Shown here: piece by piece, positions 18,429 through 21,135 of the stretch
Numbering within the stretch: the first letter of the stretch is position 1
Layout of the letters: each line of letters begins with the position of its first letter
Assembly: GCA_014377485.1 (NCBI GenBank)
Contig: JACMPM010000099.1
Location: 1-43,179, forward strand
Length of the DNA: 43,179 bases
From: Bacteriovorax sp.
Lineage (GTDB): Bacteria; Bdellovibrionota; Bacteriovoracia; Bacteriovoracales; Bacteriovoracaceae
Direction of reading: 5' to 3'
Translations under genes and position numbers: made by a program
Notes under the pieces: model-generated
What the model saw: only the letters and a program-made list of their open reading frames with translations
Database searches by the model: none
Told to the model about the DNA's origin: nothing

Positions 18429-18460
18429 AAAAAACCCTCCTTTATTGGAGGGTTTTTTTT
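18429..18460. terminator. Strong bidirectional intrinsic terminator
   Basis: AAAACCCTCC (18431-18440) pairs with GGAGGGTTTT (18447-18456) around a 6-base loop, followed by T to 18460. A-rich bases before the stem give a T tract on the minus strand too. It ends the DksA-like gene and can end the convergent lipoprotein gene. Confidence 0.9.
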
Positions 18461-18813: not shown

Positions 18814-19182
18814 ATGAAAACACTTCTTACTTTAGTCCTGCTTAGCACCTTTTCCGGCCTGGTACATGCCTCTGAAGTGCCTCAACTTCAATGCCTCGGG
18901 ACCGAGCCATTTTGGGGAATTACGACTGATGCAAATGGGACTTTGAGCATGAGTGACCCTATGTCTGACTCAAAAAGGGACTATTCTAAGGCTACAGTAA
19001 AGTCTGCACAGGGAACGACAGCTGACTTCGCCTTTCAGATCGAGGCAACAAACGAAGCCAGCAATACGCTTAAGCTCAACGTCGTGAAGGCAGAATGTAA
19101 TGATGGAATGTCGGAGAATATTTACCCTTATACTGCTTTAGTAGATGTAGATGACAGAATTTTATTTGGATGTTGTTACTAG
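18814..19182 (+). CDS. Secreted COG3650-like protein
   Basis: A 122-residue exported protein with a signal peptide (1-19, ending VHA). The motifs LQCLGTEPFWGITTD near the mature N-terminus, ECNDGMSENIYPYTALV and the C-terminal GCC match my recollection of the COG3650 group of small periplasmic or membrane proteins, whose function is unknown; some resemble the META/HslJ fold. The ATG at 18814 has AGGAG upstream. A possible -10 box TACAAT lies at 18786-18791. Confidence 0.7.
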   Translation: MKTLLTLVLLSTFSGLVHASEVPQLQCLGTEPFWGITTDANGTLSMSDPMSDSKRDYSKATVKSAQGTTADFAFQIEATNEASNTLKLNVVKAECNDGMSENIYPYTALVDVDDRILFGCCY

Positions 19183-19266
19183 GAATACTGACCAAAGTTT
19201 ATACAGGTTTTCAAAGTTTTATCGATCGTTATCTAGACACTTGAACTAAATCGCTAATATGACTAC

Positions 19267-19331
19267 TGGTTCTCTTGGCCTGAAGCTTGCTCTTTAAGGC
19301 TGGAGAACCAATTAAGCGAAGAGCTCTTCGC
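19267..19331 (+). promoter_or_regulatory. Structured leader or operator before the S8 protease
   Basis: TGGTTCTC (19267-19274) pairs with GAGAACCA (19303-19310), and the stem continues inward through GCCT (19278-19281) with AGGC (19297-19300), a long imperfect hairpin. Six bases later comes GCGAAGAGCTCTTCGC (19316-19331), a perfect 16-base palindrome. No T tract follows either, so these are not intrinsic terminators. The protease Shine-Dalgarno AAGGGA (about 19341) comes just after. Confidence 0.5.
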
Positions 19332-19352
19332 AAGATCTATTAAGGGATTATT

Positions 19353-20489
19353 ATGAACAAGCTGACCATTAAAAAGATCATTCTAGCTCATGTGATTGCG
19401 ACTATGTCGTTTTCAGCGATGTCTCAATCCACCACTCCCATCTCTAGAGTCGGGACTCCTCGAATCACAGAAGAGAGACCTTACTTCGATCCAAAAGATC
19501 TCACATCAACTTACGTAAGTTGGGGTGTAAATCCCAGCAATCCAGCGAGCATCAATCTTCTTGAAGCCTGGAAGAAATTTAAAAAGAGAAGAGAAATTGT
19601 TGTAGCAGTAGTAGATACTGGTATTGATCGCGAGCATCCATTTTTAGAGAACAATATTTTTGTAGAAAACGGAAAGGTTGATCCTTCTAACTTCGGTGTA
19701 GATTTTTCAAAAGATAAAAAAGGCAAAGGAACTCCAACTGATAATCATGGTCATGGAACTCACGTTTCGGGAATCATTAAAAGCATTTATCCAGACGTTA
19801 AGATTTTAGCTCTAAAATACTATAACCCAAGTGCTTCTGGAGTTGATAATTTAAATTCAACTGTTGAAGCTTTGAGATATGCAGTTGACCACAACGTAGA
19901 TGTAATTAACTACTCTGGTGGTGGACCGGAAGCTGCAAGCGAAGAACTTCGAGTTTTAAAAGAAGCTGAAAGAAAAGGTATTCTAGTAGTAGCTGCCGCA
20001 GGAAACGAAGAATCAAATATCGATGATAAGAAGAAAGCATATTTTCCAGCAAGCTATGGATTAAAAAATATCATAACAGTTACCGCATATGATGAAGATT
20101 TGAAGATCTTAAATTCTTCTAACTATGGACATACAAGTGTTGATATCTTTGCTCCTGGTTACAGAATTAAATCTTCTCTACAAAATGGTAGAACTGGATA
20201 CTTAACCGGAACAAGTCAGGCAACTGCATTTGTAACTGGAGTAGCAGCTCTTATAAAGGCTGAGTTTCCGCAACTCTCAACTGAAAAAATTAAAGAAATC
20301 ATTAAAGCATCAGCTAGAAAAGAAATTACGATGGAAGGGAAATGTGTAACTGGAGGACGTTTAGATGCTGGTTCTGCTCTAGCTCTAGCTGCTCAAATGT
20401 CGGGTGAAACTACTGTACAAAGACAATTGGCGAATTCAAATAAAGAAGAGCCGAAAGAAGGAAAAATTATTTACCGAATTGCGAATTAA
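19353..20489 (+). CDS. Secreted subtilisin-like serine protease (S8 family)
   Basis: A 378-residue exported protease: signal peptide (about 1-24), a short propeptide-like stretch (25-60) and an S8 catalytic domain. Catalytic residues by motif: Asp88 (VAVVDTGID), His134 (DNHGHGTHVSG), oxyanion-hole Asn218 (AAAGNEE) and Ser288 (GTSQATAFVTG). The last motif departs from the usual GTSMAxPHVAG: Met to Gln and Pro-His to Ala-Phe, though the triad is intact. A C-terminal tail of about 35 Gln/Lys/Glu-rich residues follows the domain. The ATG at 19353 has AAGGGA upstream. Its 3' end overlaps the convergent zinc-ribbon gene by 23 bases. A role in prey or protein degradation is possible only by analogy. 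Confidence 0.92.
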   Translation: MNKLTIKKIILAHVIATMSFSAMSQSTTPISRVGTPRITEERPYFDPKDLTSTYVSWGVNPSNPASINLLEAWKKFKKRREIVVAVVDTGIDREHPFLENNIFVENGKVDPSNFGVDFSKDKKGKGTPTDNHGHGTHVSGIIKSIYPDVKILALKYYNPSASGVDNLNSTVEALRYAVDHNVDVINYSGGGPEAASEELRVLKEAERKGILVVAAAGNEESNIDDKKKAYFPASYGLKNIITVTAYDEDLKILNSSNYGHTSVDIFAPGYRIKSSLQNGRTGYLTGTSQATAFVTGVAALIKAEFPQLSTEKIKEIIKASARKEITMEGKCVTGGRLDAGSALALAAQMSGETTVQRQLANSNKEEPKEGKIIYRIAN

Positions 20490-21135
20490 TAATATCTTTA
20501 TACTTCACGGTCATGGTGAGAACTGTGGCCGTAATAATAGAAACTTTCAAAAAATACTCAACTCTTAAAACACCCCATAAGCGATACTCTAAAGTCTGTT
20601 CTAACCATGGCTTTTCGAGCTTCGACTTATTATTAATCTCATCAGCTGCTTGAAGATAAAAAAGTAATTCCTGGCCTACCAAACTACTATCATTTTCAAG
20701 AAGCAATACCTGCAAAATTGAAGAGTGAACACCGTAGCGTAGAAGCTCATCAATCAGCTCCATGCTTTCTACATAAAACAATCTTCTTTGATCATTTGCT
20801 AACATGTCTGATGAATTAAAAGCAGAAATTAAGTCTGAGAAACGTTTTTCCAGCTTTCTCACATAGCTTTTAGCTATAGAAGATTTTTTATTTTCTAAGA
20901 CCGGAAAAAAACGATTAAGCTTATTAAAACTTTCAATATATCGCTCTTTTATTCCATATAAGCTCTTCGCACCAAAGGGCTCGCCGATAGGATGATACTG
21001 CAAAGATCTCCCACAAGACTCGCAAGACTTTTCACTAATATAGACTGACTGACAAAACGGACAGCGTTTGACTGGCCTATAGGCAGTACTTGGAATCCTT
21101 AGTGTTTCTTGGCTAATTCTAAAATCATAATCCAT
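20467..21135 (-). CDS. Zinc-ribbon protein with C-terminal membrane segment, unknown
   Basis: A 222-residue protein with a double CxxC zinc ribbon (C25, C28, C38, C41: CPFC and CESC), a long helical middle and one probable transmembrane segment near the C-terminus (about 192-210, YFLKVSIITATVLTMTV), so most of the protein should lie in the cytoplasm as a tail-anchored protein. No catalytic motif is visible. It diverges from lnt with 64 bases between starts. No Shine-Dalgarno sequence precedes the ATG; TACACT lies 7 bases before it, so a leaderless mRNA is possible. Confidence 0.6.
   Translation of the reverse strand: MDYDFRISQETLRIPSTAYRPVKRCPFCQSVYISEKSCESCGRSLQYHPIGEPFGAKSLYGIKERYIESFNKLNRFFPVLENKKSSIAKSYVRKLEKRFSDLISAFNSSDMLANDQRRLFYVESMELIDELLRYGVHSSILQVLLLENDSSLVGQELLFYLQAADEINNKSKLEKPWLEQTLEYRLWGVLRVEYFLKVSIITATVLTMTVKYKDIINSQFGK

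What the first reader, a model, noticed from the sequence alone, without database searches (positions are those of the whole stretch)
19267..19352. Structured leader with a 16-base perfect palindrome before the S8 protease
A long hairpin (8-bp outer stem with inner pairs) is followed 6 bases later by GCGAAGAGCTCTTCGC and then the Shine-Dalgarno sequence. No T tracts follow. This could be a cis-regulatory RNA or a dimeric repressor site controlling a secreted protease.
Basis: seen in the sequence. Interest (0 to 1): 0.6.

Follow-up and report, generated by a model that had tools for sequence, protein, structure and literature searches.

The report
Enhancer-driven protease promoter with leader hairpin
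The first 'hairpin' is really a sigma-54 promoter with a conserved upstream enhancer-like site, and the palindrome behind it is an evolutionarily maintained RNA stem-loop near the start of the messenger for a subtilisin-like protease of Bacteriovoracaceae (Bdellovibrio-like bacteria), most likely there to keep that messenger intact.

Summary
The outer hairpin (19267-19310) spans a sigma-54 (RpoN) -24/-12 promoter, TTGGC-N7-TTGCT (19275-19291), kept upstream of this S8 protease in nearly all genus and family relatives. The predicted start is 19302, so the hairpin's 5' arm is not transcribed. A 17-bp dyad, TGTCTAAAnTTTAnACA (here TGACCAAAGTTTATACA, 19189-19205), sits about 112 bp upstream at a helically phased distance. 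It looks like an activator enhancer and recurs with sigma-54 sites before other exported-protein genes (64 matches against 4 control). GCGAAGAGCTCTTCGC (19316-19331) lies in the 51-nt 5'UTR. In relatives its letters change but pairing is kept: 98% of cells paired against 71% in shuffles, 16 double-change cells against 5. Leaders of several other genera carry unrelated stems at a similar place. This is an RNA stem-loop, not a repressor operator or terminator. The best mechanism, inferred and untested, is mRNA protection like the aprE (subtilisin) leader of Bacillus or vacA of Helicobacter. New member of a known kind, inside an apparently undescribed sigma-54 regulon.

The parts
19189..19205 (+). 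Putative activator (bEBP) enhancer / UAS, TGACCAAAGTTTATACA (family consensus TGTCTAAAnTTTAnACA), starting 113 bp upstream of the predicted start
   Evidence: PWM trained on the genus scores held-out genera 13.3 bits vs 2.4 shuffled; 12 of 23 start at -114..-110 (0.6 expected) and the positions show helical phasing
19208..19239 (+). Weaker repeats of the enhancer half-sites (CAAAGTTTTATCG, CTAGACA), possible second site
   Evidence: secondary PWM hits at -94 and -79 recur through the genus
19275..19291 (+). Sigma-54 (RpoN) -24/-12 promoter TTGGCCTGAAGCTTGCT
   Evidence: conserved upstream of nearly all genus and family S8 orthologs; 27 genome matches vs 4 for the reversed control; rpoN present
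19267..19310 (+).
   Evidence: 70.8% of cells paired vs 65.4% shuffled, retained mainly in close relatives
19302..19352 (+). Predicted 51-nt 5' UTR; start inferred as 12 nt after the C of the -12 element
   Evidence: sigma-54 spacing rule; conserved GAGAAC at the start
19316..19331 (+). Leader RNA stem-loop GCGAAG-AGCU-CUUCGC
   Evidence: 6 of 6 pairs show double changes, 97.9% of cells paired vs 71.2% shuffled, covariation score 0.964 vs 0.365, 0/500
19342..19346 (+). Shine-Dalgarno AAGGG, left free by the stem-loop
   Evidence: sequence; TTAAGGGATTATTATG conserved in the genus
19353..20489 (+). S8 subtilisin-like protease, 378 aa, with an N-terminal signal peptide (by eye); triad D88/H134/S288 inferred from motifs
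   Evidence: PF00082 1e-48; subtilisin relatives in the PDB; invariant D88, H134, S288 in 22 orthologs

Best explanation
The segment is the control region of an exported subtilase in a Bacteriovoracaceae bacterium. An unidentified bacterial enhancer-binding protein binds the dyad at 19189-19205 (with weaker sites nearer) and opens RNA polymerase-sigma54 at 19275-19291; transcription starts near 19302. The 51-nt leader folds into one short stem-loop at +15 to +30 and leaves the Shine-Dalgarno free. The stem-loop is kept as structure, not sequence. It most likely protects the mRNA, by hindering 5'-end-dependent or scanning attack by the RNase E/G-type nuclease, so the protease message persists once enhancer-driven transcription has made it. 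Shown by comparison: the sigma-54 promoter, the phased dyad, the covarying stem and its fixed place in the leader. Inferred: exact start site, that the dyad binds an activator and which one, and the stabilising function.
For: Sigma-54 site in nearly all orthologs and RpoN plus about 10 sigma-54 activators in the genome. Dyad held-out test and phasing. Dyad plus promoter pairs 64 vs 4 control in the family. Leader hairpin at p<0.05 in 12 of 13 genus members (Fisher 3e-11) and in other genera combined (1.7e-5; 7 of 23 singly), but not in three control segments. Compensatory changes in all six pairs. RNase E/G gene present. Precedents: aprE 5' stem-loop (Hambraeus 2002, cited in PMC3997798 and PMC7509114) and vacA, where breaking the stem lowered mRNA level and half-life (PMC4843948).
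Against: No transcript data: the start site is inferred from promoter spacing. In this genus about 14 unpaired nucleotides precede the stem, more than the classical E. coli 5'-end shield tolerates (my knowledge), so protection would have to work on scanning or by another route. Several other genera (L018, L023, L027, L029, L069) lack a good leader hairpin, and most other members of the putative regulon lack one too.
Confidence: 0.5

Rival explanations
1. The stem-loop acts on translation: as a ribosome standby structure, an insulator that keeps the Shine-Dalgarno unpaired, or part of a CsrA site (GGA motifs flank it).
For: csrA is present; GGA occurs at the leader start, after the stem and at the Shine-Dalgarno in several species.
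Against: The stem ends 10 nt before the Shine-Dalgarno and does not cover it; the GGA at the start is missing in L003 and L006 and L009, and the one after the stem is missing in this genome.
Confidence: 0.27
2. The stem-loop affects early transcription by sigma-54 polymerase (promoter escape, backtracking) rather than mRNA fate.
For: Its place is fixed relative to the promoter in the genus.
Against: Other promoters of the same dyad class lack such a stem.
Confidence: 0.1
3. The palindrome is a DNA operator for a dimeric repressor.
For: Perfect dyad between promoter and gene in this genome.
Against: Eight distinct arm sequences, spacing between arms varying from 3 to 7 nt, only pairing kept; unique in the genome.
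Confidence: 0.04
4. The outer hairpin plus the palindrome form a longer leader RNA (riboswitch-like) made from an upstream promoter.
For: The whole segment folds better than shuffles (z -2.5); outer arms pair in several close relatives, with a little covariation (6 double-change cells vs 2.3).
Against: No Rfam match; the loop and inner arms are the conserved sigma-54 promoter; outer pairing is near shuffle level over the genus.
Confidence: 0.06

Closest known systems
[quoted passage not shown]
   Same: short 5' UTR stem-loop on the mRNA of a secreted S8 protease
   Different: different phylum, no sequence relation tested or known; here sigma-54 driven; stem starts at +15; stability not measured
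Helicobacter pylori vacA 5' UTR stem-loop (PMC4843948)
   Same: leader stem-loop on a secreted-protein mRNA in a Gram-negative bacterium
   Different: function there was measured; here only inferred
Sigma-54 promoters with upstream enhancers (NtrC/NifA-type bEBP systems)
   Same: -24/-12 element TTGGC-N7-TTGCT, dyad site about 100 bp upstream in helical phase
   Different: dyad TGTCTAAAnTTTAnACA is not the NifA (TGT-N10-ACA) or NtrC site that I recall; its activator is unknown

Membership tests
Sigma-54-dependent promoter | -24/-12 elements TGGC-N7-TTGC with GG and GC 12 nt apart | tested here: met
   19275-19291; conserved in nearly all family orthologs
Sigma-54-dependent promoter | rpoN and enhancer-binding activators in the genome | tested here: met
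Sigma-54-dependent promoter | upstream site at a conserved, phased distance | tested here: met
   binding by an activator not tested
Sigma-54-dependent promoter | loss of transcription without rpoN | not testable with these tools
   needs a mutant
5' UTR mRNA-stabilising stem-loop (aprE, ompA, vacA type) | stem-loop in the transcribed leader, structure conserved | tested here: met
   (given the predicted start site)
5' UTR mRNA-stabilising stem-loop (aprE, ompA, vacA type) | few unpaired bases 5' of the stem (ompA rule, from my knowledge) | tested here: not met
   about 14 unpaired nt from the predicted start in this genus; 2-8 in some other genera
5' UTR mRNA-stabilising stem-loop (aprE, ompA, vacA type) | shorter mRNA half-life when the stem is broken | not testable with these tools
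   needs an experiment
Known Rfam cis-regulatory RNA | match to a family model | tested here: not met
   no match in the window
Intrinsic terminator / attenuator | G+C-rich stem followed by a T tract | tested here: not met
   no T tract
DNA operator for a dimeric repressor | conserved arm sequence and fixed spacing | tested here: not met
   arms and spacing vary, pairing kept

The most novel reading that the evidence does not exclude
Bacteriovoracaceae have a dedicated sigma-54 regulon of exported proteins, run by one unknown activator through the TGTCTAAAnTTTAnACA enhancer, that times prey-digesting or surface functions; the protease carries in addition a leader stem-loop, widespread in the family and conserved in structure but not sequence, that sets how long its message lasts.
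Probability: 0.3. Interest if true: 0.65.

Novelty: new member of a known kind. Interest (0 to 1): 0.45.

Why it matters
My searches of the held literature found nothing on sigma-54 promoters of Bdellovibrio-like predators beyond passing mentions. This gives a precise promoter, a candidate enhancer and a leader for an exported protease, a genome-searchable enhancer motif, and a list of candidate co-regulated exported proteins. It also gives a clean case where structure but not sequence of a leader stem is kept, apparently convergent with the Bacillus subtilisin leader.

Tried and rejected
Rfam search of the whole window: nothing. Terminator or attenuator: no T tract. Sigma-70 promoter near the site: hits not above chance. 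Palindrome as a dispersed repeat: single copy in the genome. Leader hairpin as a general feature of the putative regulon: rejected, most members lack it. Whole-leader minimum-energy z-scores were blunt (mean z -0.98 over 28 leaders), so I then scored single hairpins in the first 45 nt, with control segments; that second score was chosen after seeing the first. MAFFT does not align the stem arms in register, so arms were paired by hand from the hairpins and counted; this leans towards the structure, but permuted arms and slid registers score far lower. The UAS matrix was seeded by eye from the same promoters; its own shuffle comparison is circular, so only the held-out test (trained on the genus, scored on other genera) is used as evidence. 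Plasmid collection: no match.

Full report
Observation. The sequence at 19267-19352 is as described: arms TGGTTCTC (19267-19274) and GAGAACCA (19303-19310), then GCGAAGAGCTCTTCGC at 19316-19331, then AAGGG and the ATG at 19353. The segment folds into both hairpins. The palindrome is single-copy in the genome. A 16-base palindrome alone is expected about 0.7 times per 43 kb, so it needed comparative support.

Gene and organism. The ORF 19353-20489 encodes a 378-aa S8 protease (PF00082) with a hydrophobic N-terminal signal (by eye) and the invariant motif residues of DTGID, HGHGTHV and GTSQAT, related to subtilisins in the PDB. Named close relatives are Bacteriovorax and Bacteriovoracaceae MAGs. 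Orthologs occur in all 14 genus genomes held and in most family genomes.

The outer hairpin is a promoter. Upstream of the orthologs the strongest conserved block is TTGGC-N7-TTGCT, the sigma-54 -24/-12 element, in the genus and in most other genera, where the flanking sequence is otherwise little alike. Two genus members (L010, L012) have GTGCA in place of TTGCT. In this genome the pattern occurs 27 times against 4 for the reversed control; about half of the 27 lie inside long ORFs and may be chance. rpoN is present. The predicted start is 19302, so the 5' arm is not transcribed. The outer pairing is retained in some close relatives but lost in others: 70.8% of cells paired against 65.4% in shuffles, six double-change cells against 2.3. 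I treat it as an inverted repeat straddling the promoter with weak support, not as an RNA.

The enhancer. A 17-bp dyad, consensus TGTCTAAAnTTTAnACA, starts 111-113 bp upstream of the predicted start in most promoters, and otherwise mostly one to three helical turns nearer. A matrix trained on the genus alone scores 23 promoters of other genera at 13.3 bits against 2.4 for shuffled sequence, 16 of 23 above the 99th percentile; 12 of 23 lie at -114 to -110 where 0.6 are expected; phase coherence at 10.5 bp is 0.64 (Rayleigh p about 1e-4). The promoters are related by descent, so these probabilities are approximate. Searching family genomes for dyad plus promoter gave 64 matches against 4 control (my sum over G000-G034 of the table). 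The genes that follow nearly all encode proteins with signal peptides or lipoboxes, by eye. The protease orthologs themselves are among those 64.

The palindrome is a leader RNA stem. In the genus the element at about +13 to +34 is GCGAAG/CTTCGC, GCAAATA/TATTTGC, GCGAAAG/CTTTCGC, GCGAAT/ATTCGC, AGCAGA/TCTGCT, AGTAGAAA/TTTCTACT, AGTGAG/CTCACT and so on, with loops of 3-7. Counted on the arms, all six pairs have double changes; 97.9% of cells pair against 71.2% in shuffles, covariation score 0.964 against 0.365, and slid registers fall to 21-53% paired. The hairpin score has p<0.05 in 12 of 13 genus leaders (combined p 3e-11) and in 7 of 23 other-genus leaders (combined p 1.7e-5), but in only one of 108 control segments. 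Examples from other genera are GGGCAA-GUAUGU-UUGCCC (L019), GAGAG-GCAA-CUCUC (L021) and GCAGGAAC...GUUCCUGU (L022, L065). Genus members are not independent, so the combined p overstates; the compensatory changes do not rest on it.

Mechanism. Conservation of pairing without sequence at a fixed place in the leader, with a free Shine-Dalgarno and no T tract, points to structure acting as a barrier. Stabilising leader stem-loops are established for B. subtilis aprE, itself a secreted subtilisin (Hambraeus 2002, as cited in PMC3997798 and PMC7509114), and for H. pylori vacA (PMC4843948). The genome has an RNase E/G-type nuclease. Against the simplest version, about 14 unpaired bases precede the stem here. 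CsrA is encoded, but GGA motifs in the leader are not consistently conserved, so CsrA control is a weaker rival.

Confidence by part: sigma-54 promoter 0.95; conserved upstream dyad as activator site 0.85; leader RNA stem-loop 0.92; mRNA protection as its role about 0.5; activator unknown.

Noticed in passing
20467-20489: The downstream gene on the minus strand (20467-21135, zinc-ribbon-like by eye, no Pfam hit) overlaps the 3' end of the protease by 23 bases; the same convergent overlap appears in several relatives (e.g. L003, L005, L006).
   Followed up: partly
L185 (G000:C144 near 74349-74450), L145, L147, L149, L150: A second conserved member of the dyad plus sigma-54 class: a 113-116-aa exported protein (MKALFITIFAVMSFGASASIVCHTPRSNK...), function not looked up, leader of 28-29 nt and no hairpin.
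   Followed up: partly
L142 and L144 (G012, G006): A short divergent lipoprotein gene shares the same dyad with the protease, with its own sigma-54 site TTGGCTTCCAGCTTGCT and a small leader stem.
   Followed up: partly
18814-19182: Small exported protein (LQCLGTEPFWGITT motif) just upstream of the dyad; no Pfam or NCBIfam match.
   Followed up: no
18429-18458: Intrinsic-terminator-like hairpin with T tract after the DksA/TraR-like gene.
   Followed up: no
L046 (G000:C81 near 119042): Another intergenic sigma-54 site in this genome whose leader holds a strong stem CTAGATT-GCTAACT-AATCTAG.
   Followed up: no
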